A stretch of DNA of 35,048 nt from NCBI GenBank assembly GCA_017887445.1, contig JAGHIA010000029.1, forward strand, positions 1 through 35,048, written 5' to 3'. The notes below the pieces were generated by a model. The model saw only the letters and a program-made list of their open reading frames with translations. It was not told the DNA's origin and did no database searches. Positions 5,836-29,934 of this stretch are shown in pieces. This DNA is from Fusicatenibacter sp. Its GTDB lineage: Bacteria > Bacillota > Clostridia > Lachnospirales > Lachnospiraceae. Position 1 is the first letter of the stretch. Every line of letters starts with the position of its first letter. The position numbers and the translations under genes are program-made.

Positions 5836-5875
5836 ACCGCCGGTACGCATAAATACAAACCTGCGTTCCGGCGGT
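5836..5875. terminator. Terminator after the DUF1540 gene
   Basis: ACCGCCGGtACGCA (5836-5849) pairs with TGCGTtCCGGCGGT (5862-5875), a 14-bp stem with one mismatch. On the plus strand it is followed by CTCCGTTTTTG; on the minus strand by TTCTATATTT. It can serve the DUF1540 transcript that ends at 6012. Confidence 0.6.
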
Positions 5876-6011
5876 CTCCGTTTTTGTAACATTTGAAAGG
5901 GTTCACCTCGCTGCCTGCTCCTGCGGGCCACGGCAGCGCTTTTTAATAATAGCGGCCTTCGACGGCTTCTCCGGCTTTTGCCCAAGCCGCAAGAAAAGCC
6001 ATAGAATCAGT

Positions 6012-6332: not shown

Positions 6333-6433
6333 AATCATTACCTCCTGATATCTTAGATTTCAGAAGATAGTATTTTCATTTTTCTTTGTTTTATTCCGGA
6401 AGATTTTTCAAATTACAAAATCACAGATCTTCC

Positions 6434-7070: not shown

Positions 7071-7210
7071 GGGTCTCTCGCTTTCTATTTGAGACAGCGC
7101 AATAGAGCTCAATCGCTGATGGCACTTTGCATTTAGAAGCAGTGCCCCTTTCTTCTGTATAATGCTCGTTTGAAAAAGGTAAAAGTTACAGATGAATATA
7201 TATTTATTAA

Positions 7211-7246
7211 AGGAAAACCAGCATGCTCTTTTGAAAACATGCTGCT
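7211..7246 (-). terminator. Terminator of the T-box operon
   Basis: CAGCATG (7219-7225) pairs with CATGCTG (7238-7244). On the minus strand the stem is followed by GTTTTCCTTT. It lies about 60 bp after the stop codon of the LysRS-like gene. Confidence 0.65.
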
Positions 7247-7301
7247 TATATGAGGCTAAACCATATACCAGTTAATGCATTTCCGTACAGTAACATTTAT
7301 C

Positions 7302-9459: not shown

Positions 9460-11413
9460 TCCTTTTCTTCCCTTCCACAAAATATTTTTCGTCGGAAAAT
9501 GTTTCAAAAGATTCATCTGTTTGGTCACTGAAAAGATAACAAACACCCGACTCTTCCTGATATTCTTCAAGAATCTGAAGAAGAATTTCCCGATGTTCCC
9601 AATCCATAGAGTCAAAAGGTTCATCTAAAATGATAACCTTCGGATTTTGCATGATCATACAAAGGATCAGTAACAGCCTTTTTTGACCTCCGCTGAGAAA
9701 ATATGGAGGAAATTCCCACAATTCTAACAAGCCTGCCTTTTTTAAAAGATCTCTCGCTCTCTCCTCATCCTTCTGTTTTCTTCTTGTTCCAAGCAGCATT
9801 TCCTCTCCTACAGACATTGTAAAAAACTGTCGATTCATTTCCTGACGCATCATCAGACAAAGTTTATCCGGAAAACATTCCTGAAAATGTTGAAAAATAT
9901 AAGTATCCAAGACAGTTTTTCCCGTACCATTTTCGCCCAGGATAGCAAGTGTCTTTCCATATGCAAACTCCAAACTTTGAAACAGATATCCAAACCGCTC
10001 TTTTAGTTCCCCTGGTACCTCCACCTGACAATGCCAATCTCCTTCCTCTATCTGAAATGTTTTCTTCTTATCCGTTCTTTCAATTTGCCGTTTCTTCGGC
10101 TGCCATAGTTTTAGACCATCATGTTCAAGGCAAAAAAACACTGCATCTGCCTTATTAAAGAACTCATCGTGAGTAACCAACAATATAATTTTTCGTTTTT
10201 GCACAGTTTCTATCAATCTTAACAGAGTCATTTTCCCTTTTTCATCTAAATATGCCGATGGTTCGTCCAAAAGCAAAATCTCATGGTCTTCGTTAAGTAT
10301 TTCTCCGATCAGTTCAAACTTTTTACACTCTCCTGATGACAATTCTCCGATATTTCTGGTTTCCAGATCAATACTACTCAATCCAAAAGATTCTATCCAT
10401 GAACTTATAATTTCTTCTGGCAAATGGTCCAGCATACTAGCTGGAGTATCAAAAAAAAGCGATTTTTCTACTCCCTGTGGTACATATCCAATGTGCGCGC
10501 AAGCAGATTTCCCATCCAAGGTCACCAGAATTTCACCTTCTGCGCGGATTATTTCCGGTATCACACCAGAAACAGCATTTAAAAATGTACTTTTTCCGGC
10601 ACCGTTCACGCCACGGATCACATAAACTTGTCCAATTTCGAATGTGCCTTCAACACTTTCAATAACCGGTTCATTTCTACCATAATACATAATCTTTTTC
10701 AAGATCACATTTAAAGTACTCTTTAATTCTTTCGCCACTTTTCTTTCTGATATCGGCATTTTCTTTAAGCTGCTTCGAATACGCTGTGCGTCCAGATAAT
10801 AAATCTTTTTACAGTCACTGATCAGTTCCATAGCTTCCAGCGCTAATGCTATAAATACATAATACGCCCTTGTAAAAATTTCTTTTTTTCCGCATCGCAT
10901 GGCATACCCCTTTTTTAATTCTGTATAAGAACGAATAAAATAAGCCACTGAATTGAACATTAAAACAAGCAAAATAAACACAGAAGCAGGTGCATTTATC
11001 CTTCGAAGACTTGCTAACAATTCATTTTGTGAAGTAATTCCTAAAAATAGCTGTCCCGTCAGAAACATACCATATAAACGCAGAACTGCGTTGCGATACT
11101 CAAAGGAACCAAACGTTTGCTGGACTGTTTCCCAAAAACCCCCGCTCCAGACTTTCTCTACAAATACTACCCAGACCACTGTCAAGATCACTGTAGACAG
11201 CAAAAGAAATTTAAACACCTTTTGTGTGTCTTTTCCCAGAAGAATCAAGCTCAATAGGAAAGTTGCCACAAGCGTAGCAATCATTAACCGCATATTTCTG
11301 ATCAGGAACACGGAAGTTATCGTCCCAAGCATAATAAATTTCAAAAAAAAGGCATCCCTCCCTATTTTTCTGTATGTTCCCAAAAACGTCTTATACTTCT
11401 TTCTTTCGTCCAT
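9449..11413 (-). CDS. ECF transporter energy-coupling module: EcfT-EcfA-EcfA in one chain
   Basis: A 654-residue fusion. Residues 1-about 235 are an EcfT (CbiQ-like) membrane subunit with several helices and the coupling-helix-like segment YYLDAQRIRSSLKKMP. Then follow two ABC ATPase domains. Domain 1 has Walker A GVNGAGKST, signature LSSGECKKF and Walker B ILLLDEPSA. Domain 2 has Walker A GENGTGKTV, signature LSGGQKRLL and Walker B VIILDEPFD. Normally these are three genes (ecfA1, ecfA2, ecfT) shared by many S components; here they form one polypeptide next to its own S component at 12576. The chain powers uptake across the membrane. It lies 69 bp after the NIF3 gene, with GGAGGAGG upstream, and overlaps the next gene. 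Confidence 0.9.
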   Translation of the reverse strand: MDERKKYKTFLGTYRKIGRDAFFLKFIMLGTITSVFLIRNMRLMIATLVATFLLSLILLGKDTQKVFKFLLLSTVILTVVWVVFVEKVWSGGFWETVQQTFGSFEYRNAVLRLYGMFLTGQLFLGITSQNELLASLRRINAPASVFILLVLMFNSVAYFIRSYTELKKGYAMRCGKKEIFTRAYYVFIALALEAMELISDCKKIYYLDAQRIRSSLKKMPISERKVAKELKSTLNVILKKIMYYGRNEPVIESVEGTFEIGQVYVIRGVNGAGKSTFLNAVSGVIPEIIRAEGEILVTLDGKSACAHIGYVPQGVEKSLFFDTPASMLDHLPEEIISSWIESFGLSSIDLETRNIGELSSGECKKFELIGEILNEDHEILLLDEPSAYLDEKGKMTLLRLIETVQKRKIILLVTHDEFFNKADAVFFCLEHDGLKLWQPKKRQIERTDKKKTFQIEEGDWHCQVEVPGELKERFGYLFQSLEFAYGKTLAILGENGTGKTVLDTYIFQHFQECFPDKLCLMMRQEMNRQFFTMSVGEEMLLGTRRKQKDEERARDLLKKAGLLELWEFPPYFLSGGQKRLLLILCMIMQNPKVIILDEPFDSMDWEHREILLQILEEYQEESGVCYLFSDQTDESFETFSDEKYFVEGKKRNGK

Positions 11414-11482
11414 ATATTTTCACCCGTATCCTCCTCCAAATATGTCTATTTCGTAGCATAATCTCTGTCCAGACACTAAGCT

Positions 11483-12382
11483 TTATTTCCACAATTCTTT
11501 ATCATAAATCAAAAGCGGCAACATATCGCTGCATCCCGCCACCAATTCTGTCAGCCTCTTCAGCGCCCAAAATTCACTCTGATAATGAGAAATGCAATAT
11601 ATCTTTAAAGAGGTCTGTGAAATATATTCTTCTATTTGTTTTGTTCGCCTGCTACCATTTCTCAAAAGAACATCACCACAAATTAAAATGCCACAATTTT
11701 GCTTTTCCACACGCTGAAGCATCTCTGTACTACTAATCATTCCGGCAATCACTGCAATTTTTTTCGATAAATCCAGTTTCTGATCCACATTTCCATAGGA
11801 TATGGTATCTGGAAACATTTTTCTCAGCTGTTTTTCTGAAAACATACTGCCATTAACCATATATCCTATAGTCCCAAATGGATACTCCAGCAAATCCTTT
11901 TCAGGAACCAATCCCAGTTGCTCAGTCAATGCCCGATGTGTATTCACAACCGACTTGTTTACATCCAAGGGAAGATGTATAGAACAAATCTGCACTCCTC
12001 TATCATATAATTGCCGCAGTTTCTCAATATTTATCATTGAAAACCCCGTCCCAGAACAAGTTCCTGGCCGTCCGCAGTCGATATCAAAAAAATGATGTGT
12101 CAGCAAAAAAATATTCTGCTCTTTCTGCTGACTTAACAAGTTTTTCACACAGACATCATCCAAAAAAACGGAACACGCGATCACAGAATACTCTCTGTCC
12201 TGAACGCATGGAAATACAGTTCCGTTCATTCCTTCCAGAAACTCCTGTGAAAACATTCTCTCCGCTGTTTTTTCAATCAGATTCCGTCTTTTTCTCATTG
12301 AATGGTCCGTGAACTCTTTCATTATACTTCTATCTGTCCACTGATAAATTCTTTTTAAAATATCTTGTTCTTTCATTTTCAA
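11483..12382 (-). CDS. NIF3 family dinuclear-metal protein
   Basis: A 299-residue protein matching the NIF3 / GTP cyclohydrolase I type 2-like family. Visible family marks are the metal-binding THHFFD (residues around 95-100), the CSIHLPLDV segment where families usually have a YxxHTNLD-like motif, and the C-terminal ISHYQSEFWALKRL with the His and Glu ligands. NIF3 proteins form hexamers with two metal ions; their enzymatic role is still poorly defined. It is an unusual partner for an ECF transporter and synthetases, and may process the imported compound. About 190 bp without any recognised feature separates it from the S-component gene at 12576. Confidence 0.75.
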   Translation of the reverse strand: MKMKEQDILKRIYQWTDRSIMKEFTDHSMRKRRNLIEKTAERMFSQEFLEGMNGTVFPCVQDREYSVIACSVFLDDVCVKNLLSQQKEQNIFLLTHHFFDIDCGRPGTCSGTGFSMINIEKLRQLYDRGVQICSIHLPLDVNKSVVNTHRALTEQLGLVPEKDLLEYPFGTIGYMVNGSMFSEKQLRKMFPDTISYGNVDQKLDLSKKIAVIAGMISSTEMLQRVEKQNCGILICGDVLLRNGSRRTKQIEEYISQTSLKIYCISHYQSEFWALKRLTELVAGCSDMLPLLIYDKELWK

Positions 12383-12575
12383 AGCCTAACCTTCCACGTC
12401 GTTTCCAATTTCCAATAACGAATGTCTCCCATAATCATTATTTCCCCATTCGTGGCGCACTGGCTACGCTAATAATGGTAGATTTAGAAGTTTACTTCAA
12501 AACTTCCATTCCCATTCTCCAAAAAAGCAGAAAAGTTCCGGAGTTTGCATTTCCGAAACCTTTCCACATATTTCT

Positions 12576-13124
12576 TTACAGATTAAATCTCTTTGCCAAC
12601 GGTGCCACGAATTTCATCAGCGGGGTACCGATAATAAAATATACACAAACACCGCCAATCCACCATGGGATAAAAGCTGGCCAAAAGGCATCTCCTGGGA
12701 TAATTCCAACGACCACCCAGCCTCCCAACACCCACAGCGCAGAAACCGCTGGAGCAATTAGAAACAAAACAGCCATTACCAAAATGTCACTGGCTTTTTT
12801 CAGTTCGCAATTACGTTTCAACAGCTTCATGCCATAAACAATCACCACCGATGCCACAACATTCCCCCAGGCACCATAAAGCGGAAACAATGAAAATCCA
12901 CCGGAAATTACGGAAGAAAGAATCAAACCAAGATAAACACCAAGGACACCTTTCCATCCGAAAAGATAGATAAATAAAATATAGAATGCCGAGCTCACAT
13001 AGAAAGCGGACACCGACAAAATACCAGTTGGAAAACCTATGACCGCAAAAATATCCAATACCGCAGTCAATCCTGCAAGCACCGCAATTACAATAATCTC
13101 CATTCCCCTCCGCGTTTCTTTCAT
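12576..13124 (-). CDS. ECF transporter S component (substrate-binding membrane subunit)
   Basis: A 182-residue protein with about five to six hydrophobic helices. The pattern FGWKGVLGVYLGLILSS followed by the GAWGNVVAS segment is typical of the S components of energy-coupling-factor importers. It binds the substrate and couples to the EcfT-EcfA-EcfA chain encoded at 9449. Its ATG overlaps the ThrRS stop in an ATGA, so the two are translationally coupled. Because the operon answers to a threonine T-box, threonine, a threonine-containing peptide or an analogue are the natural guesses for substrate, but the sequence does not prove this. Confidence 0.75.
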   Translation of the reverse strand: MKETRRGMEIIVIAVLAGLTAVLDIFAVIGFPTGILSVSAFYVSSAFYILFIYLFGWKGVLGVYLGLILSSVISGGFSLFPLYGAWGNVVASVVIVYGMKLLKRNCELKKASDILVMAVLFLIAPAVSALWVLGGWVVVGIIPGDAFWPAFIPWWIGGVCVYFIIGTPLMKFVAPLAKRFNL

Positions 13125-14893
13125 TTCATTTGCTCCTCGCTTTCAACCAGCTGCAACGTTCTTTCTTCATTCATTTTGCTGCAAACCTTGACAAACTGCT
13201 CAAGAGGAACATTTTTCAACTGTTTTCCACCGCGAATATTGATAGAAACTGTTTTGTGTTCTGCTTCCTCATTACCAAGTACCAATACATACGGAATTTT
13301 ATAATTTCTGAAGGCCTTAATTTTCTTATTCATATGATTTTCTGAGAAATCAGCCTCACAACGTATACGTTTCTTCTGAAGAGCTTCCATAACCTCCTTA
13401 GCATATTCTGAGTGTTCTTCACGGATCGGCACAATACCAACCTGTACCGGAGAAATCCAGAATGGAAATGCTCCCTTGAAGTTTTCAATTAAAATACCGA
13501 TAAAACGCTCGATAGAACCATAGATAACACGATGAATGATAACTGGAACTTTCTCTGTACCGTCTTTATCCGCATAAGTAATATCAAAATTACGTGGGAG
13601 CTGGAAATCAAGCTGGATTGTACCCATCTGCCATTGTCTGTTCAACGCATCCTTCATCATAATGTCAATCTTAGGACCATAAAACGCTCCGTCACCTTCG
13701 TTGACATCATATCCATCTTCGCCATAACGTTTATTCAAAATATCTCGGAGATTCTCCTCTGCTTTGTTCCAAAGATTAATGTCCCCCATAAAATCTTCCG
13801 GACGCGTGGACAATTCCGGACGATAGGTCAAACCAAAAATACCATAGAACAAATCTGCGATATCAAGAATCGCATTGACTTCGTCATATATCTGATCCTC
13901 TGTGATAAAGTTATGAGAATCATCCTGACGGAACATCTGCACACGGAGCAATCCATTTAACTCACCGGATTTTTCTTTTCTATGAAGTACATCACAATCT
14001 GAGAGACGCAGCGGCAGTTCTCTGTAACTTCTGTTTGTTCTCTTGTATACAACGATAGAATTCGGACAGTTCATCGGCTTCACACCATATGTGTTGTTTT
14101 CATCTACCGGAATTGTAAACATACCATCTCTATAGTGATCCCAGTGTCCGGATGTAATCCAAAGGGAATTGTGGTTAATCAGTGGCGAGGAAATCTCCTG
14201 ATAGCCTCTCTTTTCATGCTCTTCCCTCCAGAAATCCAATAAGGTATTAAACAATTTCCAACCTTTCGGAAGCCAATATGGCATACCCGGTGCTGTAGGA
14301 TCCATAAAAAACAGATCCAACTGCGGTCCAAGAATCTTATGATCGCGCTCCTTTGCTTCCTGCAGGAATTTCAAATGAGCTTTCAGTTCCTCCTTTGTTT
14401 CAAACGCAAACACATAGATTCGCTGAAGGACAGCATTGTGCTCGTCTCCCTTCCAATATGCAGCGGAAACAGATTTAATCTTAAACGCACAGCTGAGAAG
14501 TTCTGCTGAATTGCTCACATGTGGCCCTCTGCAAAGATCTTTAAAATCATCGCCCGTATAATAAATACTAATAGTCTCACCTTCCGGCAGTTCTTCAATC
14601 AGTTCCTCTTTGAACTGCTGCCCCTTAAACTCTTCCAGTGCTTGCTCTCTGGACACCTCCACATAGCGGAAGTCTTCTTTTCGCTTAAGAATCTCACGCA
14701 TTTTACTTTCAATCATCTCGAAATCATCTGGCGTTACAGTTCTCGGTAAAAGAAAGTCATAGTAAAATCCTTCGCTGATCTGCGGTCCTATTGCCAGCTG
14801 AACATTTTCCTTACCAAAAATCTCTACAACCGCCTTCGCCAGAATATGCGCCATGGAATGACGATAACATTCCGAAAAATTCTCAGTCTTCAT
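13121..14893 (-). CDS. thrS: Threonyl-tRNA synthetase lacking the TGS domain
   Basis: A 590-residue ThrRS charging tRNA-Thr. It starts directly with the editing domain (HSMAHILAKAV; CRGPHV), so the usual N-terminal TGS domain of about 60 residues is missing. The class II core is intact: zinc Cys in MNCPNS, HRKEKSG, the zinc His in FRQDDSHNF, FYGPK, GTIQLDF and the motif 3 region IHRVIYGSIERF. The C-terminal anticodon-binding domain follows. The ATG has AAGGAGGAAATGAA before it. The gene is first in a long operon and is preceded by a T-box with an apparent ACC specifier. It is probably a second, regulated ThrRS, though short ThrRS forms also occur as sole copies in clostridia. Confidence 0.93.
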   Translation of the reverse strand: MKTENFSECYRHSMAHILAKAVVEIFGKENVQLAIGPQISEGFYYDFLLPRTVTPDDFEMIESKMREILKRKEDFRYVEVSREQALEEFKGQQFKEELIEELPEGETISIYYTGDDFKDLCRGPHVSNSAELLSCAFKIKSVSAAYWKGDEHNAVLQRIYVFAFETKEELKAHLKFLQEAKERDHKILGPQLDLFFMDPTAPGMPYWLPKGWKLFNTLLDFWREEHEKRGYQEISSPLINHNSLWITSGHWDHYRDGMFTIPVDENNTYGVKPMNCPNSIVVYKRTNRSYRELPLRLSDCDVLHRKEKSGELNGLLRVQMFRQDDSHNFITEDQIYDEVNAILDIADLFYGIFGLTYRPELSTRPEDFMGDINLWNKAEENLRDILNKRYGEDGYDVNEGDGAFYGPKIDIMMKDALNRQWQMGTIQLDFQLPRNFDITYADKDGTEKVPVIIHRVIYGSIERFIGILIENFKGAFPFWISPVQVGIVPIREEHSEYAKEVMEALQKKRIRCEADFSENHMNKKIKAFRNYKIPYVLVLGNEEAEHKTVSINIRGGKQLKNVPLEQFVKVCSKMNEERTLQLVESEEQMK

Positions 14894-20521: not shown

Positions 20522-20768
20522 TTAGTTATTGGATATTCCATTGGCAGCCAGCCAGCTGCTCACATCATCGGGCATGCTGCTCCCGCCGGAATAGTGGATG
20601 CTTAAAGCTTCTCCCATAGCCGCATCCGGCGCCAGCTTTGCAATGGCCGTCAAACTCTGTCCGAACCGTCCGCCGCCGTGGCTGCAAAACGGAATAATGG
20701 TTTTTCCGGCAAAATCGTACTCCTCCATGAAAGAAGCAATCGGCATGGGGATGGACGCCCACCAGTTG
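20522..20768 (-). pseudogene. 3' part of the split flavodoxin gene
   Basis: The minus strand reads NWWASIPMPIASFMEEYDF, then AGKTIIPFCSHGGGRFGQS and ends SSWLAANGISNN. This is the C-terminal third of a flavodoxin of the FldA/DUF-type lipoprotein group. It has no start of its own and is cut off at codon CC(C) at 20768. The missing N-terminal part is at 29200-29654: it ends VVYLGYP, and the two halves join in frame to give LGYPNWW, the normal family sequence. Confidence 0.9.
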
Positions 20769-20879
20769 GGGAACTAAAACTTGTATCATGTAAAATATCC
20801 CTTTATTTATCAGCATTTGAACAGCATACACACTTTTTTCTATTTTTATTTATTCTCCGCTTTCTGAACATCTAATCTT

Positions 20880-22661
20880 CTACTTCATTGACAGCTTTTC
20901 CACTTTTCTTGTCAGCATTATATTCTCTTTTTTCAGGCGTTCATTTTCTTCCAATAACTTTTTTATCTCATTCCGGTAGATTTCCACCTGTTTCTCCATA
21001 CTTTTCTCGCGGACTTCCCGTTTAATCTGCGCCAATTTTCCTTGATCTATTTTTTCTCTTTCTTTATCCAGCACAGACTTTACTTCTTCATTTTTGTAAA
21101 AGAAACCCTTGGACAGTCCTGTATTTTGCGAAAGTTCAGACACTGATAGACCTTTACCTTCTGAAGATGCTCTGCGGATTTCTTCAACAGCACGTTCTAT
21201 TTTTCGTCTACTTTCCTGGCGATTTTTCTCATTCATCTTATCGTATTTTGCCATTAACAAATTTCCTCGCAGGCTGCTTTCCATCTTTGCATAATACTCC
21301 ATCGACTTTTTCACCAGTTCTTCATCCAGCAATCCGATGTGTTTCTTTACCATTTCATCCGTTTGGTAACCCATATAATCACGAATTACCTGAATTGAAG
21401 CGCCACTTCTATAAAATGCTTTACATACTTCTTTTTGATAGCCATTCCCTTTAAACACATACTCATCTGTCAATATACCAGACCTTCTGCATTGTTTCAT
21501 AATTGCATTTTGAAATCCTTCTGCCGTAAACTTTTTCCCGTTATTCAGGAAAAGCAGATTTTCCACAGATATGTGATTTCTATCCGAATATTTCAGGACA
21601 AACCAGTGCAAAACATCTGGAATCGGTATGCTTCTGGTGGTATCCGGTACCTTCATCCAGCTATTCTCATTTTCATAGTAAAAATCCGCATTTTTCAAAA
21701 GAAATAGTTGTCCCTTCTTGATACCTGTCGTAAGAAGGATGAGACTCATAATACGAAGTTTGTCTGGAAATTCTCCAAGATGGGCTGTTAACAAATCCAG
21801 TTTCTGATCCAGATTATTAATTTCCTTTACGGTCGGATAGCTCTTCTTATAATACAAGGGAATCGGATCAGAAAACTCGCCGATACAATCTGTTACCTGC
21901 AAATAATGCAAAAATGACGAAATAACCCGCAGCTTGTTATTATAACTTTCCGCTGAGATATGCTGCATAGATAATCTTTTCAAATATTCCTCTACCGAAT
22001 TACGCTCAATATCTGTTATACTCTTTTCACGTTTTCCTAAAAACCTCAAGAACTCTTTGATATAAGTATGATGAATACGGATGGTTCCTATATTTAGAGA
22101 AGTGACCCTCAAAAGATATTTTAGATATCTTTGCAGACTCTGACGATTCTCGTTAAAATGAATATCTAAAAAAGCAAAACTTTCAATGGCGTTGCTTCGG
22201 CTATATCTCTCTGACGAAATATTCAGTCTTTCCGTAAACCAGACATTCGCTTCCCAATTTATTTCCTCAGCTTTCAGAAATAATACCCTACGGCAGAAAA
22301 AGATAAATTTTTTTGGACTCAAATAAGGATTGCCATATTCTTTTTTAAGCATACAAAAATATTCCTGCTCTTGAGCAGACTCCATTTTCATAATATCTCT
22401 CATTCCGCTTTTTTCAGCATAGTAAAACAGGCACTTGAGCGGAAGCAAGTACCCGTTTCGTCTCTCTGCTTTATTTTTTATTGATTTTACAATCTCATTC
22501 AGAAGTATTTCTATCTGCATTTTGATCTTTTCGTCAAGAGTTTTTCCAAAATCCCAGTATAGGATTCTCTGTTCGGACTCTTTTTCAAAGGATCTGGCGA
22601 CAGTATCACTAAAATATTCCGGCAGATAGATTTCCTGATTCAGCGGAAGTTTTCTCTTCAT
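20880..22661 (-). CDS. Catalytically degenerate tyrosine-recombinase-like protein fused to a DUF6262/TnpC-like tail
   Basis: About 593 residues from MKRKLPLNQEIYLPEYF. The body aligns by eye with Tn554 TnpB-type tyrosine recombinases: a SAM-like core-binding domain, then the catalytic domain. The five catalytic positions all differ: Arg is Lys in TTGIKKGQL, the HxxR(H) box reads NGYQK, LGH is MGY, and the nucleophile Tyr is His in VKKHIG. The tail from about residue 490 (NRQESRRKIERAVEEIR…LSVSELSQNTGLSKGFFYKN…, then a coiled coil) resembles the separate TnpC/DUF6262 protein of Tn554 elements. It could be an architectural or regulatory partner that needs an active recombinase elsewhere. The 13 residues upstream lack a ribosome-binding site. 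Confidence 0.75.
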   Translation of the reverse strand: MKRKLPLNQEIYLPEYFSDTVARSFEKESEQRILYWDFGKTLDEKIKMQIEILLNEIVKSIKNKAERRNGYLLPLKCLFYYAEKSGMRDIMKMESAQEQEYFCMLKKEYGNPYLSPKKFIFFCRRVLFLKAEEINWEANVWFTERLNISSERYSRSNAIESFAFLDIHFNENRQSLQRYLKYLLRVTSLNIGTIRIHHTYIKEFLRFLGKREKSITDIERNSVEEYLKRLSMQHISAESYNNKLRVISSFLHYLQVTDCIGEFSDPIPLYYKKSYPTVKEINNLDQKLDLLTAHLGEFPDKLRIMSLILLTTGIKKGQLFLLKNADFYYENENSWMKVPDTTRSIPIPDVLHWFVLKYSDRNHISVENLLFLNNGKKFTAEGFQNAIMKQCRRSGILTDEYVFKGNGYQKEVCKAFYRSGASIQVIRDYMGYQTDEMVKKHIGLLDEELVKKSMEYYAKMESSLRGNLLMAKYDKMNEKNRQESRRKIERAVEEIRRASSEGKGLSVSELSQNTGLSKGFFYKNEEVKSVLDKEREKIDQGKLAQIKREVREKSMEKQVEIYRNEIKKLLEENERLKKENIMLTRKVEKLSMK

Positions 22662-22684
22662 ATCTTTTTCTTGTTTGTAAAATG

Positions 22685-23075
22685 CTATTTGACAACCCAT
22701 TGTCCTGATTTACGACTGCCAATACGCTCGATCATTCCTTTTTCTCTCAGTTCCTTTATAACTCGCCTTATTTGCCTGTCAGAACGACTCAGTTTTTGGG
22801 AAAGCTGTGCCTATGTGATATGAGAATTTTCTCTCATTGCTGATAACACTATTTCCTCTAATGAAACATCTAATAGGACATTTAATGGGCCATTTATTAG
22901 GACATTGTGATCTTTTAAAACGTTCTGCTGTCCTAAAGGCGTAAATTTTACCATAATATCTTCTAAGTGAAGCGTATATTCCGGTATTGGAACACCATGT
23001 TTTTTACAGGTTTCGCAGATTTTTTCGATTCCTCTCCCCATGTTTCCACATATCCTGCCCGGAAAAACAGTTTAC
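22685..23075 (-). pseudogene. C-terminal remnant of a Schlafen/AlbA-type ATP-binding protein
   Basis: The segment GRGIEKICETCKKHGVPIPEY then EDIMVKFTPLG is typical of the C-terminal half of AlbA_2/HATPase_c_4 transcriptional regulators. The frame closes at a TAG (22811-22813) but the same frame resumes as AQLSQKLSRSDRQIRRVIKEL…RIGSRKSGQWVVK, a winged-helix end. Upstream, FRAGYVETW is in another frame, a one-base loss near 23038, and nothing precedes it. So the gene is truncated, frameshifted and amber-interrupted. Its last codons overlap the upstream end of the recombinase-like gene. Confidence 0.8.
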
Positions 23076-23126
23076 TGGGTACAATTTAGATTATCCGTTC
23101 TACATTCATATTTCTTACTATACCGA

Positions 23127-24902
23127 TTATTGATGCCATTCCTGCCGCAATTTATCAAAATTGAGATTTTTCCATTCATCTTTCCACAAGTTCCAATATG
23201 GTATATCGTTTGATGAAGGTGGATAATCTTTACATTCATCAATTTGAACGACCGATGGCATTACAATCGATTCTCCAATTAGTAAAGCTTCACCTGCGGA
23301 AAGTGATGGCAATTTCTCAATTAAATTACCTAACGTATCTGGCAATAACTTTTTTACATAACCCTGATCATTTGGATTGGTAAGTCGCATTGCAATGAAA
23401 TTATTACACTGGGAAAAAATAGTTTCTGATATTTCCGACGGTCTTTGACTTGCAAGCATTAGTGTAATTCCATATTTTCTGCCTTCCTTTGCAATACGTT
23501 CTATTGCTTTTTGAGATGACCTATATTTTGTCAATTCACTTTTAGGAACATATTTATGAGCCTCTTCATATACAAGTAAGACTGGCACATCATTATTTAT
23601 TTTTTCTTCTTCGCTAATTTTACATCTATATCTCTTATAAAAATAGCCATATTCAAAAATTAATCTTGATATTAGTGATACTGTAATGCTTAAAACTTCA
23701 AAGGGTACACCACTTAAATCTATAACCGTTACATTTGATTTATTCTCATCTATGTACCCCATCAATTGTTTTAAAACTTTTTCAAATGTTATTTGCCTTG
23801 TCTTTTCACCAAACAAAAAATCCAATCGTTTATCTTTAACTTTTGCCATTAATCTTGTAGAAAATTTGTCCAAAGTTCCATCATTATAATCACCTTTTGT
23901 AATACTTTGCGATTTAGTAGAATAAAATTTCCACTCTGCCTCAAAATATTTTTTGATTCTTTCCTCTTCTGTTAGTTCTATTCCTGATGTTTCATTTGTT
24001 TTACGATCCTCTGGAAGTGAATAAGTGCCATCATTTATCATATACCTTGTACTATTTTTTGCATTATACGTTTCATTTTTTAAATTATTAACAGCATTTG
24101 TTATTTCATCAATATCAAAAAAAACAGGTGTGTCATAATAAATCTTTTCTTCTTCTGGATTATGTTTTGATTTGTTTTCAGTGACCAATGTCCTAAAAAT
24201 TGATGCTTGATTATAATTATCCCTTTCTCCAGTATCCAGTAAAATTTCTTCAAGTTCTTCACTATTCAATAACCAATATGGCAATATCAAATTATCAATG
24301 TTTAAAAAATTAGCTTCTGGAAATGCACTTTTATACTCGGAATGTATATCAAAAATAATAATATGTGAATTATTAAGTGAAAACTCCCCACCTTTTTCTT
24401 TTACTGCATTCTGTATTATTTTACAAACTGTATGCGATTTTCCTGAACCTGTTGATCCTACAATTGCTATATGCTTATTAAAAAACTTATTTCCATTCAC
24501 TGGAATAAGAATTTCTCTATCGGAAGATAATCTTGAAAAAAGAAATTGCTCATCCTCACCCACTGATTCCATAAAGATTTTTTTAATGTCTTCCTTTGAG
24601 GCAGGTTCAACTTTCTTTGGCGGAATTGCAATCGTATCTCCTCCACGAATAAATTCATCCCCTACCAACATTCCCAATGGTAATGCTTCAATATTATATG
24701 TTCGTTCACCACTATCTTTGACTTCTATTGAAAAGTTTTCAATAATCGCAATTAAAACTGCATTTTCATTATCTGCAATTCGAAGATAAGAGCCTACTTT
24801 TAATGATTCATTTGCTACCTGAAATTCAGACAAATCATCAACAGCAATCTTTATCTTATTGGGATAAACAGATATTACTTCCGCATTTATTTTTTCAACC
24901 AT
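23127..24902 (-). CDS. HerA-family hexameric ATPase
   Basis: A 591-residue protein. An N-terminal HAS-type barrel (residues 1-95) precedes the P-loop ATPase: Walker A GSTGSGKS at 149-156, an IIIFDIHSEY segment, Walker B VLLVYEEAHKY near 441-451 and LASQRPSEIS near 484-493. HerA ATPases form hexamers that pump or load DNA; in defence systems they pair with a nuclease or Sir2 effector. Its ATG overlaps the stop of the DUF4297-like gene by one base (TAATG), so the two are translationally coupled. It is the last gene of a four-gene run read from 28086. AT-rich compared with the chromosome on either side. Confidence 0.9.
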   Translation of the reverse strand: MVEKINAEVISVYPNKIKIAVDDLSEFQVANESLKVGSYLRIADNENAVLIAIIENFSIEVKDSGERTYNIEALPLGMLVGDEFIRGGDTIAIPPKKVEPASKEDIKKIFMESVGEDEQFLFSRLSSDREILIPVNGNKFFNKHIAIVGSTGSGKSHTVCKIIQNAVKEKGGEFSLNNSHIIIFDIHSEYKSAFPEANFLNIDNLILPYWLLNSEELEEILLDTGERDNYNQASIFRTLVTENKSKHNPEEEKIYYDTPVFFDIDEITNAVNNLKNETYNAKNSTRYMINDGTYSLPEDRKTNETSGIELTEEERIKKYFEAEWKFYSTKSQSITKGDYNDGTLDKFSTRLMAKVKDKRLDFLFGEKTRQITFEKVLKQLMGYIDENKSNVTVIDLSGVPFEVLSITVSLISRLIFEYGYFYKRYRCKISEEEKINNDVPVLLVYEEAHKYVPKSELTKYRSSQKAIERIAKEGRKYGITLMLASQRPSEISETIFSQCNNFIAMRLTNPNDQGYVKKLLPDTLGNLIEKLPSLSAGEALLIGESIVMPSVVQIDECKDYPPSSNDIPYWNLWKDEWKNLNFDKLRQEWHQ

Positions 24903-26143
24903 TACACAATCTCCTTTATATTATTAGGTTTTTCTATTTGTATTTTTATATGTTTTACCTCATCAGATCCATTATAAAAAATTTCATCTATGTAAAACTG
25001 ATAAATCTCTATTTTTTTATGAATCTTGGAAATCACTTCATCTAACATTACGATATCATTTATAAATTTTATTGCAATTTTGTTTGCAAAAGTTGCTGCT
25101 ACAGTCAATGCGTCAGGATAAAAATCTGACATATAAAATGGAAAACCATCGGCGAAAACTACTCCTTCTCTAAATAGCTCCCCTTTAATCATTGCCAATT
25201 GTTCTTCTGAAATATTATGAAAATAAACATATGGACAAAAGGATTGTCTTTCTCTTTTAGAGCACTTTGACCACTTTTTTATGAGCAAATAAGCTAAATC
25301 TTTTAAGATTATTGGCTCAAAACCAGTCTTTCCAGCATCGATCAGAAAAAAACGTTCATATGGCGAAACATTAAAACATGTAAAATACTCTTTTCGTATT
25401 TCTTTGAATACTGCTTTTTGCGTCCTAAATAAGTAAAACCACTGATTAAAAAGTATTTCCTTTTTATTTATGCATTCTAAAAATTCTCCTTTTGAAATTT
25501 CCCTTTCTGAAGGAATTTGACAGATTGCAATATTTTTTATAACTTTCAATGCATTATTATAATAATAGTGTTCGGCCTCGAATCTTGTACACTTGAAATT
25601 GTCAACAATTTTATCAAAAATATCGTGTATTTGTTGCTGAAATGCTTGTGCATTTACATCTATTTTCAGTAATGAAAGAAATTCTTCTAAATCAGTATCT
25701 GAAAGGTTCAGCAACTTATATTCCTCAATAATTTCATATCGATCACTGTCTTTTATCTTCCGCTTATGTGTCAAAAACTTCTGTTTAAGAAATGGAACAT
25801 CTAATGTATCTGGAAACTTGTCCTGCCCTGTTGAATAATATCCATATAACATATATTTTATTTTATTCTTGCCATTATTTTTTCTCTCTGCAAAATCCAC
25901 TAATAAATATTTTACAGCCTCCGATATTACAGAATGATTATATTCAGTACCTTCATAATATTTACATTGAATTGCTATTTTATTATCTGCTGATGTTACA
26001 TCAACATCCTCAATTCCTTCTACCATTATTTTATCTGTCATATGTTCAAGCTTCAACAACTGCAAAATAGTAAAGTCAAATTGGTAGAAATAACCCTTTA
26101 AGGTACTAACCGCACTTCTATCTTTCAAAATATTCTCCCTCAA
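24902..26143 (-). CDS. DUF4297-like nuclease, HerA partner
   Basis: A 413-residue protein. The N-terminus (TLKGYFYQFDFTILQLL … VEGIEDVDV … IAIQCKYYEG) matches the PD-(D/E)xK-type fold of DUF4297/Cap4 nucleases, with acidic residues near 42-48 and the QxK at Q59 and K61. The remaining 300 residues are a helical region without a recognised motif. DUF4297-HerA pairs are a known type of antiphage system in which the two form a large complex that degrades DNA. Its start lies 26 bp inside the end of the RloB gene. Family assignment rests on motif and gene partner only. Confidence 0.75.
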   Translation of the reverse strand: MRENILKDRSAVSTLKGYFYQFDFTILQLLKLEHMTDKIMVEGIEDVDVTSADNKIAIQCKYYEGTEYNHSVISEAVKYLLVDFAERKNNGKNKIKYMLYGYYSTGQDKFPDTLDVPFLKQKFLTHKRKIKDSDRYEIIEEYKLLNLSDTDLEEFLSLLKIDVNAQAFQQQIHDIFDKIVDNFKCTRFEAEHYYYNNALKVIKNIAICQIPSEREISKGEFLECINKKEILFNQWFYLFRTQKAVFKEIRKEYFTCFNVSPYERFFLIDAGKTGFEPIILKDLAYLLIKKWSKCSKRERQSFCPYVYFHNISEEQLAMIKGELFREGVVFADGFPFYMSDFYPDALTVAATFANKIAIKFINDIVMLDEVISKIHKKIEIYQFYIDEIFYNGSDEVKHIKIQIEKPNNIKEIV

Positions 26144-26801
26144 CTTTACGCTGTATTTCTCCTACTAACCGCTGCACCATACAAGCCGGCCACATCTCCG
26201 ATGGCTTTTTCTTTCCATCATCTACACATTTCTTATAGCACCGTTCCGCTATTTGAATTGCCTTTTCCTCATTCCCATACTGCACCAGCTTGCGGTAAAT
26301 ATCCTTATCCTTCTTAAGATATTTCTGCCCTGTAACCTGCTCAAATTTATCCGCAAACCGGTCACAGCATGTATAAGATTCCTGTATTGCCGGCATCTCT
26401 CCAAAATAAGCATACATCCAAATCTCAAAACAAGGATTGGACCAGCCTGCACCAACACCACTTTTTTCTGCCGCCTGAATAATATTGTCAAAATTCTTTA
26501 CCTGATCCCTATCAAATACAATCCAAGGGATACGGTATTGTGGCTCCTTACTCGCAAGTTCCAGTGCCCGTTCCACCAATTCTACCGTCTTCGCTTTTTC
26601 CACCTTTATTACCAGACGATCCTTCAGCTCTGCCGGAATACTGTCCCGCAAACCCTCAAAATAGTTCTTTTCTGTTTCCTCTGTATCTGTCACTATTAGA
26701 TAATATCCTAACTCTGGTACTCTTATTCCCACACGCTGGTTCCGGTCTTTTCTTTTCCCGGCTCTGCGGTCGCTGGGCTTTCCTCCACTTTTATTCGCCA
26801 T
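26118..26801 (-). CDS. RloB-family protein (TOPRIM-like)
   Basis: A 227-residue basic protein of the RloB group. The N-terminus is Lys/Arg-rich. LIVTDTEETEKNYFEGLRD contains the acidic residues of a TOPRIM-like site (about E41, E44) and PWIVFDRDQVKNF carries the DxD pair (97, 99); WSNPCFEIWMYAYF is another conserved block. RloB proteins always travel with an AAA15-type ATPase and are associated with phage resistance or restriction loci. Its ATG is inside the end of that ATPase gene by 11 bp. It probably supplies a nuclease activity controlled by the ATPase. Confidence 0.85.
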   Translation of the reverse strand: MANKSGGKPSDRRAGKRKDRNQRVGIRVPELGYYLIVTDTEETEKNYFEGLRDSIPAELKDRLVIKVEKAKTVELVERALELASKEPQYRIPWIVFDRDQVKNFDNIIQAAEKSGVGAGWSNPCFEIWMYAYFGEMPAIQESYTCCDRFADKFEQVTGQKYLKKDKDIYRKLVQYGNEEKAIQIAERCYKKCVDDGKKKPSEMWPACMVQRLVGEIQRKVEGEYFER

Positions 26802-28086
26802 CCGCAGCCCTCCCTGTAAGCATCTTCATCGGTTTCAGTGCCGGAATAGCTCCATAGTTACCTGTAAGATAATTCTTTGCCAGTGCCTCATCTCTGCGTA
26901 CTTTATTGCCTTCCTCGTCTTTAAACTCGGCCAAAGAATACAAATCTGATACCCCATCTATGTTCTTGTTTACCATCCAGATTTCATCCCTACGCAGCAA
27001 TTCATTGGAAAACTGCCAGATGTCATGGGTAGTAAAAACAATCTGAGCATTCTGCGTATTAATTTCTGGCGATAAAAAGGTCAGTATGATATTCCGAACC
27101 AGCAATGGATGCAACCTGGCATTCAGTTCATCTACAAATAATGTTCCACCGTTATCCAGTACATCTTTCAAAGATGGGTAAAGTGCAAACATTTTCAGTG
27201 TACCGCTTGACTCCTGTTTTAGCGGAATCGAAGCCATCTCCTTACTGCCCACCTTTCTATGGAGAGCATCAATCGTATAGCTCTTGCTCATATCTTTCTC
27301 ATCTTCTGGCGGTAATTCTTCCACTTCAAAATCTTGTATTGCCTCATCAAAGGATGCAAAATACTTTACCACATTCTCCTGCACTTCCTTACTATCTATA
27401 AATCCATCTGGCAGGACTCTGGAGCGAAAGAAATTTTCTGCCGGGTCACCGAAATCAATGATATCATTGTTTAAAAACCAATCCCTCACTTTCTTCAGTT
27501 TTGCAACACGCAGTTTTGCCCCCAGAGAAACAATAAGCGACTCTTTATTCAATGATGCCTTAATATTCTCCACATGACTCCTGGAAAATCCATTCATCTC
27601 CAATTCTTCACCTTTTTTACGGTAAAACACAGTCCTATAATTGTTTCTTGCTGTTTTAGCCTTGGAATACAGCCATTCCTCCACTACCTCATCTGCTTTT
27701 AGAGAAAATCCATACTGGTATATCTTTCCGGTATTCTCTGAATTGTCAACATAGAAAACTTCAAATGTAGTCTCTTCATTACGACTGTTATCATCAAACA
27801 GAAACGGAGTGACTTTCAGATAATCCTCCTCCTTCTTTCGGCGTTTTTCATCCTCATCTCCAAATTTAAACGACTCTGCCACATAATAAGTCATATAGTT
27901 AAATGCATCATACACATTTGACTTACCGCTTGCATTAGCACCATAAATCGCAGCTACCTTGAGTAACTTGTCATTTGCAATAGCCACAACATGATCCTCA
28001 TGTTCTGTTATTTTAGTCGCTGACAAATCCAACGACACCTCATCACGAAATGATTTGAAATTTTTAAAGTTAAATTGTATCAGCAT
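26791..28086 (-). CDS. AAA15-family ATPase (RloA-like), partner of RloB
   Basis: A 431-residue ATPase of the OLD/ABC-ATPase-like AAA15 group. Walker A GANASGKS is at 49-56 and Walker B TLFVDELNARLHP follows in the C-terminal part, with TTHDIWQFSN as the switch region. The start MLIQFNFKNFKSFRDE is chosen because GAGGAGATTAAT precedes it; 21 extra residues upstream have no such site. It heads the overlapping run of four genes and has its own promoter at 28129-28156. In known systems such ATPases sense phage components and unleash the partner nuclease. Confidence 0.9.
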   Translation of the reverse strand: MLIQFNFKNFKSFRDEVSLDLSATKITEHEDHVVAIANDKLLKVAAIYGANASGKSNVYDAFNYMTYYVAESFKFGDEDEKRRKKEEDYLKVTPFLFDDNSRNEETTFEVFYVDNSENTGKIYQYGFSLKADEVVEEWLYSKAKTARNNYRTVFYRKKGEELEMNGFSRSHVENIKASLNKESLIVSLGAKLRVAKLKKVRDWFLNNDIIDFGDPAENFFRSRVLPDGFIDSKEVQENVVKYFASFDEAIQDFEVEELPPEDEKDMSKSYTIDALHRKVGSKEMASIPLKQESSGTLKMFALYPSLKDVLDNGGTLFVDELNARLHPLLVRNIILTFLSPEINTQNAQIVFTTHDIWQFSNELLRRDEIWMVNKNIDGVSDLYSLAEFKDEEGNKVRRDEALAKNYLTGNYGAIPALKPMKMLTGRAADGE

Positions 28087-28128
28087 ATTAATCTCCTCAT
28101 TCTGCCTTCTATGAACTCTTACTATTAT

Positions 28129-28191
28129 AGTATATGCCTTTTTAAGCAAAAATCAACATCTATTTTCGCAAAAATATAAAATTAGATGTTG
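28129..28191 (-). promoter_or_regulatory. Promoter of the four-gene defence run with an inverted repeat
   Basis: Minus-strand TTGATT (28151-28156) and TATACT (28129-28134) with a 16-bp spacer. The inverted repeat CAACATCTA (28154-28162) and TAGATGTTG (28183-28191), 20 bp apart, overlaps the -35 and could be a repressor site. Confidence 0.55.
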
Positions 28192-28317
28192 TTTTTTCTT
28201 TGATATGTCTTTTCTCTTACAATTCATTCTCTGCAACTACCGTACGGCTTCGCCAATTGAATCTTTATCATGAACCGCTCCTTCCTCTCTCAAAACAGTC
28301 ACATTTTCCCTTTATAA

Positions 28318-28347
28318 AAGGCATAATCCGTTTCCGAACTATGCCTT
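28318..28347 (-). terminator. Terminator of the cargo flavodoxin gene
   Basis: AAGGCATA (28318-28325) pairs with TATGCCTT (28340-28347); the minus strand continues TTTATAAAGG. It lies about 20 bp after the flavodoxin stop. Confidence 0.6.
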
Positions 28348-28367
28348 ATCAAAAAATATCTATTCAA

Positions 28368-29057
28368 TTACTGCTCCAGGCTCTCCAACCAAGCTATCAC
28401 ATCTTCGTCAGAATCACTGGAACGAAAACGCATACCTTCCTGCCAATCTCCAGTTCCAGCCAACTCTTCCAGCAATTTACCGCTCTCACCCAAACCAGAG
28501 CTTGCTGATGTACAGAATGGATTGACAGTTTTTCCGGCAAAATCATTTGCCTCTACAAAAGTGTTTACCGGCCATGCTGCAATTTCCCACCACACATGGT
28601 AACCCAGATAGATTTTTTCCACGTTCTGCCAATCATCTATGGTATCAGCTACTAGCTCTACATTCCTCAGGCTTTCATTGGCATATTCCTGAGACACACG
28701 GCTATTATCATCATTGTATTTCAAATCTTCATTGGTATAAGGAGTAACCGGCTCCAGCTCGAACAATTCTCCACCTGTCGTTTCGGCAATCACTTTCGCC
28801 ACACGCTCTGTGTTACCGGTAGCTGAGAAATACACGACAAGAGTTTTTCCTTCTGTTCCACCACCGATTTTTTCCGCCTCACTGTTTGCTTCAGTACTAT
28901 TTTCTTCTGTTGTGGCTAAAATGGATTCATTCTCAACTTCTTCCTCTGCATTTAACTGTTCTTGATTTTCCACTTGACCATTCCCGCTCCCGCATCCAAC
29001 CAACATACTGACTATCAGGATACACACTGTTACCAATAAAAATCCGCGTTTCTTCAT
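28368..29057 (-). CDS. Flavodoxin lipoprotein carried inside the element
   Basis: A 229-residue exported flavodoxin. The N-terminus is a lipoprotein signal (MKKRGFLLVTVCILIVSMLVGCG) with Cys in LVGC, then a Glu/Asn-rich linker and the flavodoxin fold. TLVVYFSATGNTERVAKVIAE is the FMN-phosphate loop, VTPYTNEDLKYNDD and YLGYHVWWEIAAWPV are typical family blocks. It aligns along its length with the interrupted host flavodoxin, including the very place where the element sits (YLGYP/NWW against YLGYHVWW). It is complete and lies 127 bp inside the right border, in the same direction as the broken gene. An upstream in-frame ATG at 29070-29072 is an alternative start. It carries electrons on the outer face of the membrane. 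Confidence 0.85.
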   Translation of the reverse strand: MKKRGFLLVTVCILIVSMLVGCGSGNGQVENQEQLNAEEEVENESILATTEENSTEANSEAEKIGGGTEGKTLVVYFSATGNTERVAKVIAETTGGELFELEPVTPYTNEDLKYNDDNSRVSQEYANESLRNVELVADTIDDWQNVEKIYLGYHVWWEIAAWPVNTFVEANDFAGKTVNPFCTSASSGLGESGKLLEELAGTGDWQEGMRFRSSDSDEDVIAWLESLEQ

Positions 29058-29199
29058 AGGGCATGCCCTCATTCATCTAATACGATCTATACTCAACACA
29101 ATACACAAATCTTATCTTTCCTTGTGTACACAGTTCCATTCATTCTCAAAAAACCTACTTAATACACACTATACACAGTTAAAACCATACTCCATTTTA

Positions 29200-29654
29200 G
29201 GATATCCCAGATACACCACATCGTACTGCTCAAAGTTATCTACGGTATCGGCAATCGCTGGGCGAGCGTCGTTTACCTGTTCGTCCTGCGCAATATCCAA
29301 CAGGGTATCGTAGTCATCGGTATAGGGTTCCGCGGGAACAATCTCAAAAACATCCGCGCCGGTCTGAGCCTGGATTTCATTTGCCACTGACTCGGTATTG
29401 CCAGACCAGGAAAAATACACCACCAATGATGTGGAACCTGTTCCTGTTTCCGGCTGAGAGGATTCCCCGTCCTGCGGTACACTCTCAGTAGGAACCGTAC
29501 TTTCAGAAGAGGACATATTTTCTCCGGGTGCGGCAGAGCTTTCCGGCCTGGAGGCCGCTTCCAGGGTACTGCTTTCCGTAGTGCCGCTGTTTCCACAGGC
29601 GGCAAGGAAAAATACCATTGTGAGTGTCAACATAAGAGAAAGAATTTTTTTCAT
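29200..29654 (-). pseudogene. 5' part of the split flavodoxin lipoprotein gene
   Basis: The frame starts MKKILSLMLTLTMVFFLAACG, a lipoprotein signal with lipobox LAAC, preceded by GTGGAAAGGAGATTCTT. A Ser/Glu/Pro-rich linker leads to STSLVVYFSWSGNTESVANEI, the FMN loop, and it ends VVYLGYP at the element border; eight or nine element-encoded residues (KMEYGFNCV) follow before a stop at 29169. Its C-terminal third is at 20522-20768. Joined, the protein would be about 234 residues. A five-copy 52-bp tandem repeat lies directly upstream. Confidence 0.9.
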
Positions 29655-29667
29655 ACTAAGAATCTCC

Positions 29668-29934
29668 TTTCCACTTTCTTGCGCTGTTTTTAAGCGCATT
29701 CTGGTATACCCGAAGGGTATTTCCACTTTTTTGCGCTGATATTAAGCGCATTCTGGTATATCCGAAGGGTATTTCCACTTTTTTGCGCTGTTTTTAACTG
29801 CATTCAGGTATACCCGAAGGGTATTTTCACTTTTTTTGTACTGCTTTTAAGCGCATTCTGGTATACCCGAAGGGTATTTCCACTTTTTTGCGCTGTTTCC
29901 AGCGCAATCAAGGTATACTCAAAGGGTGTTTCCG
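29668..29934. repeat. Five tandem 52-bp repeats upstream of the flavodoxin gene
   Basis: Units at 29668-29719, 29720-29771, 29772-29823, 29824-29876 (53 bp) and 29877-29928, plus a short trailing part. Each contains two dyads: ATACCC-GAA-GGGTAT, and GCGCT-N7-AGCGC, joined by a T-run. Units 1, 2 and 4 are closest to each other, unit 5 is the most divergent. There are no spacers. They occupy the space between the flavin reductase stop and the flavodoxin ribosome-binding site and could be a stack of regulator sites, for instance for the MerR protein at 30552. Confidence 0.9.

What the first reader, a model, noticed from the sequence alone, without database searches (positions are those of the whole stretch)
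20769..29199. An 8.4-kb element splits a flavodoxin gene; deleting it restores the frame exactly
The 5' part of a flavodoxin lipoprotein ends VVYLGYP at 29200, and its 3' part starts NWWASIP at 20768. Joined at the shared GG they read GGA TAT CCC AAC TGG TGG, the usual family sequence, without any gained or lost base. This fixes both borders by reading frame alone. The ends show a weak inverted repeat (CTAAAA…GTAT) and no clear target duplication, as in site-specific recombination rather than DDE transposition. The target (a codon pair in a conserved flavodoxin motif) would be a new kind of att site.
Basis: partly seen in the sequence, partly recalled or inferred. Interest (0 to 1): 0.85.

Follow-up and report, generated by a model that had tools for sequence, protein, structure and literature searches.

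The report
Defence-gene satellite inserted in flavodoxin gene
A small mobile DNA element carrying anti-phage defence genes has cut a bacterial flavodoxin gene in two at one exact conserved spot, and sister elements use the same spot in other gut bacteria even though their own recombinase has lost its active site.

Summary
Window 20769-29199 (8,431 bp) interrupts a Flavodoxin_4 lipoprotein gene; removing it rejoins G-Y-P|N-W-W in frame. Two uninterrupted homologues, about 73% identical, align without a gap across the join. The site is recurrent: 12 loci carry the same right end directly after flavodoxin codons, and the 9 with both ends rejoin in frame. For a 54-kb conjugative relative, a sister species carries the uninterrupted allele, base-identical at the join. 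So this is site-specific integration at flavodoxin codons; my paper searches found no such att site. The element belongs to a non-autonomous family. Its 606-aa tyrosine recombinase is fused to a TnpC-like DUF6262 domain and has lost every catalytic residue, yet dN/dS is 0.11-0.30 in 36 of 36 (non-independent) comparisons. Recombinase quartets end at the same codons in other genomes. Best reading: a satellite with interchangeable, mostly defence-type cargo, moved in trans by Tn554/GInt-type quartets, sometimes carrying a replacement flavodoxin (complete in 4 of 12 loci, broken in a fifth). Integration and site choice are shown by comparison; trans-mobilisation is inferred.

The parts
20769..29199 (-). 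integrated element, 8,431 bp (right end R at 29199, left end L at 20769)
29200..29654 (-). 5' half of the disrupted flavodoxin lipoprotein gene (target), from the ATG of MKKILSL
   Evidence: ORF 29169-29726; Pfam Flavodoxin_4
20522..20768 (-). 3' half of the disrupted flavodoxin gene
   Evidence: (Flavodoxin_4 positions 92-152)
29070..29199 (-). R end: TAAAATGGAG at the border, then GTGTA/TACAC motifs (5 in 130 nt; interior of this element 0.18 per 130 nt)
20769..20898 (-). L end: ...AGTTTT then the 7-nt internal core
20769..20775 (-). 7-nt internal core AGTTCCC, read as a copy of a former donor's G-F-P codons (Tn554-type brought-in att); inferred
   Evidence: with PMC12486829 (introduction part 1 read) and PMC10214605 (passages)
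20880..22700 (-). 606-aa fusion: catalytically dead TnpB-like tyrosine recombinase plus C-terminal DUF6262 (TnpC-like, residues 485-594)
22811..23041 (-). 76-aa remnant of the SLFN_AlbA_2 / HATPase_c_4 / winged-helix protein that is an open frame of 444-448 aa in L050, L052, L054, L057, L058
   Evidence: domains from the L050 copy; no Pfam match for the remnant itself
23127..24902 (-). HerA-type ATPase, defence cargo
   Evidence: PADLOC HerA E 5.5e-292
24902..26143 (-). DUF4297 protein, partner of HerA
   Evidence: E 2e-148
26118..26801 (-). RloB / AbiLii, defence cargo
26791..28149 (-). AAA ATPase AbiLi, defence cargo
28368..29072 (-). flavB: complete flavodoxin lipoprotein carried just inside the R end, possible replacement of the killed gene

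Best explanation
This is a non-autonomous, site-specific element (a satellite). Shown by comparison: such elements sit in one orientation between Pro and Asn/Ile of the conserved G-(Y/F)-P-(N/I)-W-W codons of flavodoxin genes; the same ends and codons are used in diverged flavodoxins of several genera; recombinase quartets (TnpA, TnpB, a third tyrosine recombinase and DUF6262/TnpC), one on a 54-kb conjugative element, end at the same codons; the small elements carry interchangeable, mostly defence-type cargo; their signature protein, a TnpB-TnpC fusion, has lost all catalytic residues while staying under purifying selection. Inferred: an incoming or co-resident quartet cuts and joins the satellite ends in trans; the dead fusion binds the ends or target and acts as an adaptor; as in Tn554 and SE elements, about 6-7 bp of the donor site are carried along; the complete flavodoxin inside the R end restores the function lost by insertion.
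For: Site: 12 R junctions; 9 of 9 two-ended loci rejoin in frame, 8 of 9 continue into a flavodoxin 3' half. Uninterrupted allele: G423 matches the joined G132 flanks over 460 of 460 bp at 99%, identical at the join; 6-bp CTTCCC at both junctions. Mobility: flavB of L051/L054/L055 is 92.1-97.9% identical in DNA while their disrupted 5' halves are 62.0-62.7% identical. Dead site: R to K328, beta-Lys region deleted, H to N419, R to Q422, H to Y445, Tyr to H454; the same motifs in the 7 sister copies that cover them (one motif of L057 is hit by a frameshift), with Tyr to N in six of them. Selection: dN/dS 0.11-0.30 in 36 of 36 pairs of 9 sequences. A shared inactivating deletion in L052 and L054, two different organisms, means that a broken copy spread. 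Quartets at flavodoxin 3' halves: G177, G318, G132 (third recombinase split in two frames) and a two-piece remnant with DUF6262 in G065. Shared end signature: GTGTA/TACAC mean 3.56 per 130 nt at R ends of 9 elements versus 0.17 inside; 4 at the G132 R end.
Against: No movement or circle was observed. With the G177 third recombinase as query, a full-length match was found in only 2 of 12 genomes bearing these elements (G451 and the window's own), plus a remnant in G034; the window genome's quartet on C18 shows no flavodoxin flank and no matching L end, and a look 1.5 kb to each side of G451's shows no flavodoxin. The fusion is broken in 7 of 9 sister loci and cut by a contig end in an eighth. 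The uninterrupted allele is for the G132 relative, not for the window's species; genus searches for G065 and G230 found none. In G034 and L055 the halves look like different paralogues. 21 of 25 places with the third recombinase showed no flavodoxin within the stretches searched. The family is rare in the sample: a strict R-end pattern hit 4 of 397 family genomes, though it misses variants such as G230.
Confidence: 0.7

Rival explanations
1. The element is autonomous: the 606-aa protein is a divergent but active recombinase using another nucleophile.
For: It is the only recombinase recognised in the element, its frame is open in the window and L050, and it is under purifying selection.
Against: All six catalytic positions are lost, including the nucleophile, which is H in the window and L050 and N in six other copies; 7 of the 9 sister loci hold broken genes and L056 is cut by a contig end; a broken copy is shared by two organisms.
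Confidence: 0.1
2. The islands are immobile relics of flavodoxin-targeting conjugative elements that now spread only by homologous recombination between flavodoxin loci.
For: Remnants of the third recombinase and TnpC in G034; mosaic halves in G034 and L055; repeated flavodoxin 3' pieces in L055, G034 and G435.
Against: The flavodoxin 5' halves of L051, L054 and L055 are 62.0-62.7% identical, while their R ends agree closely from the element border on; homologous exchange would be expected to carry flanks along.
Confidence: 0.15
3. The dead fusion works as a repressor or site-exclusion factor against conjugative elements using the same att site, not as an adaptor for transposition.
For: Recombinase-family protein with a DUF6262 domain, under selection, next to an SLFN_AlbA_2 winged-helix gene in several sister loci.
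Against: Broken in 7 of 9 landed sister copies, which fits a transposition role better than a resident function.
Confidence: 0.12
4. Chance: a DDE transposon or random insertion that happens to restore the frame.
For: None beyond the single window locus.
Against: Recurrent identical site, orientation and ends in 12 loci; no DDE transposase among the Pfam matches of the element's proteins.
Confidence: 0.01

Closest known systems
Tn554 / Tn552-II type elements (TnpA, TnpB, TnpC)
   Same: TnpC-like DUF6262 domain (that Tn554 TnpC is DUF6262 is recalled), tyrosine-recombinase ancestry, no target duplication, about 7 bp brought-in core; Tn552-II also carries a target-gene-like gene proposed to rescue the target (PMC12486829, abstract and introduction part 1 read)
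   Different: Target is flavodoxin codons, not radC (recalled) or a YolD-like gene; no active recombinase; defence rather than resistance cargo
GInt and SE elements (integrases plus dead Tfp or GinC and GinD/Srap)
   Same: Quartet organisation of the presumed helpers; a recombinase-related protein without the RHRY motif is part of the required set there; 6-bp footprint (PMC10214605, abstract and passages)
   Different: Hosts listed there are mainly Proteobacteria; here Lachnospiraceae; here dead TnpB is fused to TnpC and stands alone in small elements. No sequence comparison with Tfp or GinC was made
Integrative mobilizable elements and other helper-dependent elements
   Same: Small, no transfer machinery recognised, presumed to need a helper
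   Different: No relaxase among its Pfam matches; would borrow the integrase function, not only conjugation
Phage-satellite defence hotspots (P2/P4)
   Same: Fixed core with swappable defence modules (PMC9122126, title and abstract start seen in a listing)
   Different: No phage genes among the Pfam matches other than integrase-type domains; helper would be a conjugative recombinase element

Membership tests
Tn554 family | encodes TnpA and TnpB with the RHRY residues plus TnpC | tested here: not met
   one TnpB-like domain without catalytic residues, fused to DUF6262; no TnpA recognised
Tn554 family | site-specific insertion without target duplication | tested here: met
   (the 6 bp shared at both G132 junctions count as a carried core, not a duplication, by analogy)
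Tn554 family | short donor core carried to the new site | tested here: inconclusive
   variable 7 nt at the L end can be read as G-(Y/F/H)-P codons in 11 of 12 L junctions, in two codon phases; the pattern is permissive, no control was run and donors are unknown
Tn554 family | radC target (recalled for Tn554 itself) | tested here: not met
   flavodoxin
GInt / SE | four-gene operon of integrases plus a GinD/Srap protein | tested here: not met
   not in the window element; a quartet of that kind of layout is present in G177, G132 and G318
Conjugative element (ICE) | type IV coupling protein and VirB4-like ATPase inside the element | tested here: not met
   no PF02534 in the window element; its HerA has only a weak TrwB_AAD_bind match, E 1.6e-6. 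PF02534 and P-loop_TraG are in the 54-kb G132 element
Lamassu / HerA-DUF4297 / AbiL and other defence cargo | matches to defence profiles | tested here: met
   window: HerA, DUF4297, AbiLi, AbiLii; Lmu in L050, L051, L058 and G034, PDC-S60 in G310, weak SAVED3 in L055; none for L053, L054, L057; G065 only a methyltransferase match to mad2, not counted. 7 of 11 elements scanned, not every cargo protein of each
Lamassu / HerA-DUF4297 / AbiL and other defence cargo | protects against phage | not testable with these tools
   no assay

The most novel reading that the evidence does not exclude
A family of satellites of conjugative elements in gut Lachnospiraceae keeps a catalytically dead recombinase-TnpC fusion as an adaptor that draws a helper's recombinases onto its own ends, inserts into flavodoxin codons, ferries swappable anti-phage systems and repays the host with a spare flavodoxin.
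Probability: 0.45. Interest if true: 0.85.

Novelty: new variant of a known kind. Interest (0 to 1): 0.72.

Why it matters
It gives an apparently undescribed codon-level attachment site shared by a conjugative element and its presumed satellites, a testable case of a selected but catalytically dead recombinase, and a concrete vehicle by which different anti-phage systems could be swapped between genera of gut bacteria. It also offers an example of an element carrying a copy of the gene it destroys.

Tried and rejected
Autonomous recombinase: rejected on lost catalytic residues. The window genome's own quartet on C18 as a flavodoxin-specific helper: no flavodoxin flank (one weak 17-residue match, E 0.057) and no L-end match in C18. 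Viral contigs: no relative of the recombinase confirmed. Other quartets as flavodoxin inserts: stretches beside the third recombinase in G002, G033, G243, G167, G181, G212 and G198, G331 and, for G261, G268, G184 and one G167 place had no flavodoxin at the thresholds used; the rest were looked at only within 1.5 kb. Conspecific uninterrupted allele for the window: not available, since the held genomes are one per species and the best-scoring same-genus match to the flavodoxin 5' part was 37% identical. Genera of G065 and G230: none found. Genus of G034: flavodoxin A runs uninterrupted through the join codons in G435 and G376, but G034's 3' half is of another type. A relaxed R-end pattern is not discriminating: control counts are similar to the real ones; a one-mismatch hit in G457 is not beside a flavodoxin.

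Rows dropped: seven of 17 rows (L017, L020, L022-L025, L028) were extracted on the wrong strand and ignored; one search is the clean alignment. In one search the row meant as G132 TnpC was given wrong coordinates and returned a piece of the third recombinase; TnpC of G132 rests on the DUF6262-region match. Of the 9 loci, L052 had no flavodoxin on either side and L056 is cut by a contig end; L054 and L058 have only the R junction. L057 is the G230/L044 contig and is counted once. The flavodoxin tree used 29 ORFs kept by length and coverage filters; the cargo clade has moderate support (87/76; 90% of 200 bootstrap trees).
Full report
OBSERVATION. On the minus strand the flavodoxin lipoprotein gene runs from the ATG near 29654 to ...GGATATCC (29200), is interrupted by 20769-29199, and resumes at CAACTGGTGG (20768) down to its stop at 20522. 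Each half hits Pfam Flavodoxin_4 by itself. The join translates NFEQYDVVYLGYPNWWASIPMPIASFMEEYDFAG. Two uninterrupted homologues in other genomes align without a gap through the join (L104, 73.4% over 154 residues; L006, 72.5% over 153) and read G-Y-P-N-W-W-A there.

RECURRENCE. A scan of genome contigs with the 606-aa recombinase gave 9 loci. Seven of the nine (L050, L051, L053, L054, L055, L057, L058) have the same R end directly after flavodoxin codons; L052 has an L end beside unrelated sequence, and L056 is cut by a contig end. In all, 12 R junctions read GG-NNN-CC|TAA(A/T)(A/C)TG(G/A)AG, and 12 L junctions were aligned, 11 of them flavodoxin and L052 not. One cut rule was used for every locus: 5' side after CC, 3' side one base before A(A/T)(C/T)TGG. 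Nine loci have both ends; all nine rejoin in frame, and eight continue as a flavodoxin (L057 stops soon after IWWGD). The 5' half of L053 gives only a weak tblastn match (33% over 24 residues, E 0.003) but reads YDTIFLGFP at the join. The eight small two-ended elements are 3,452 to 9,099 bp. The family is not common in the sample: the strict R-end pattern hit 4 of 397 family genomes, and 28 of 299 genomes matched the recombinase, of which only G230 besides the window was a close relative, the rest being about 22-42% identical.

UNINTERRUPTED ALLELE. The G132 element is 54,087 bp. The same-genus species G423 matches the joined G132 flanks over all 460 bases at 99%, with identical bases around the join; the two flank alignments overlap by the 6 bp CTTCCC. 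Genus searches for G065 (3 genomes) and G230 (4 genomes) found no such allele. For G034, relatives G435 and G376 have intact tandem flavodoxins A and B; G034's 5' half is A and its 3' half is of type B, so DNA between them was lost or exchanged there. L055 looks alike.

THE ELEMENT MOVES AS A UNIT. The carried flavodoxins of L051, L054 and L055 are 92.1-97.9% identical in DNA, while the disrupted 5' halves beside them are 62.0-62.7% identical. A carried copy just inside the R end is an open gene in the window, L051, L054 and L055 and broken in L050, so 4 complete plus 1 broken of 12 loci with an R junction; none was seen in L053, L057, L058, G034, G065, G132 or, on its truncated contig, G310. 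The five form one clade with moderate support, next to chromosomal type-B flavodoxins.

THE RECOMBINASE IS DEAD BUT SELECTED. Against TnpB proteins of quartets (C18 of this genome, G177, G132, G318) the catalytic positions read: Arg I to K328, the beta-strand lysine segment deleted, HxxR to N419 and Q422, the second His to Y445, the nucleophile Tyr to H454. The 7 sister copies that cover these motifs agree (one L057 motif is hit by a frameshift), except that the nucleophile position is N in six of them; L058 does not cover them. A DUF6262 domain is fused at the C terminus. Pairwise dN/dS over gap-free codons is 0.11-0.30 in 36 of 36 pairs of 9 sequences, which are not independent (first estimate). 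So the protein was kept by selection although it should not be able to cut DNA. The reading frame is open in the window and L050; L051 has one in-frame stop, and L052-L055, L057 and L058 carry frameshifts or deletions. L052 and L054, in different organisms, share one inactivating deletion, so an already broken copy spread. This fits help in trans; it does not prove it.

PRESUMED HELPERS. Quartets (TnpA, TnpB, third tyrosine recombinase, TnpC) end at flavodoxin 3' halves in G177 (open frames of 372, 587, 504 and 140 aa), G318 (446, 585, 521 and 151 aa) and, with the third recombinase split in two frames, G132; G065 has a two-piece third recombinase plus DUF6262 in a flavodoxin. The 5' flavodoxin half and R end were found for G132 and G065 but not for G177 and G318 in the stretches read. 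The G132 element has a type IV coupling protein (PF02534), a TraG-type ATPase, and lysozyme-like and CHAP domains; one 427-aa protein looks relaxase-like by eye (recalled, not tested). Of 25 places with the third recombinase in 21 of 329 genomes, four are in flavodoxins; for 21 no flavodoxin was found in the stretches searched, so quartets use several targets. A full-length third recombinase was found in 2 of 12 genomes bearing these elements, plus a remnant in G034: the helper is mostly not resident.

ENDS AND CORE. R ends carry 2-5 GTGTA/TACAC motifs in 130 nt (mean 3.56 over 9 elements; L ends 1.00; interior 0.17), including the 54-kb element. At the L end 7 variable nucleotides precede the target; in the window they are AGTTCCC. 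In 11 of 12 cases they can be read as the end of a G-(Y/F/H)-P codon string, in two phases; this is a permissive reading without a control. Tn552-II and SE elements carry a short donor core in this way (PMC12486829, introduction part 1 read; PMC10214605, passages read). I infer the same here; donors are unknown.

CARGO. Window: HerA plus DUF4297, and AbiL. Sisters: Lamassu parts in L050, L051, L058 and G034, PDC-S60 in G310, a weak SAVED3 match in L055, nothing for L053, L054 and L057; in G065 a methyltransferase matched mad2, which I take as generic and do not count. So 7 of 11 elements scanned, window included, match defence profiles; not every cargo protein of each was scanned. The unmatched L053 and L054 proteins are candidate defence genes by position only.

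LITERATURE. Searches for Tn554 with recombinase, defence and target site, DUF6262, flavodoxin with ICE, attB and Lachnospiraceae, trios and Tn554-like, defence-island satellites, flavodoxin with Tn554 (0 papers) and Tn554 core or radC listed no paper whose title or abstract start describes a flavodoxin att site; most lists were capped (for example 20 of 91). I read abstracts of two papers, one introduction part, and passages of PMC10214605, PMC11706625 and PMC8138268, no whole paper; most subscription journals are not held.

VERDICT. Ordinary in its parts (Tn554/GInt recombination, defence cargo), new in combination: an apparently undescribed flavodoxin attachment site, a selected dead recombinase-TnpC fusion, and a carried replacement target. 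Integration and site are shown by comparison; trans-mobilisation, the adaptor role and rescue by flavB are inferred.

Noticed in passing
L055 11905-18056, L043 15366-18411, L132 (G435): Arrays of cargo genes (Fic-type, AbiE-type, DUF4143-type by eye) are followed by L-end-like sequences or displaced type-B flavodoxin 3' pieces, as if modules accrete at the site and some carry their own 3' half of the target.
   Followed up: partly
G000:C18 (L045) 5711-11640: The window's own genome holds a complete quartet with three successive DUF6262-like genes, with no flavodoxin found on that contig.
   Followed up: partly
window 22811-23041; L050 8656-9990: An SLFN_AlbA_2 / HATPase_c_4 / winged-helix gene precedes the dead recombinase and is an open frame in five sister loci; its role is unknown (the L050 copy also has weak PADLOC pAgo-type matches).
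   Followed up: partly
window 22859-22906: Short 12-nt tandem repeats inside the remnant of that gene; the homologue in G230 has a similar repeated stretch by eye.
   Followed up: no
window 7302-14893: Cluster read by eye as a fused ECF-type ABC transporter, a threonyl-tRNA synthetase, a lysyl-tRNA-synthetase-like protein, a nucleotidyltransferase and a NIF3-like protein; possibly a biosynthetic or self-resistance cluster.
   Followed up: no
window 173-2038: 621-aa ATPase that looks like an OLD-type nuclease by eye, a possible further defence gene outside the element.
   Followed up: no
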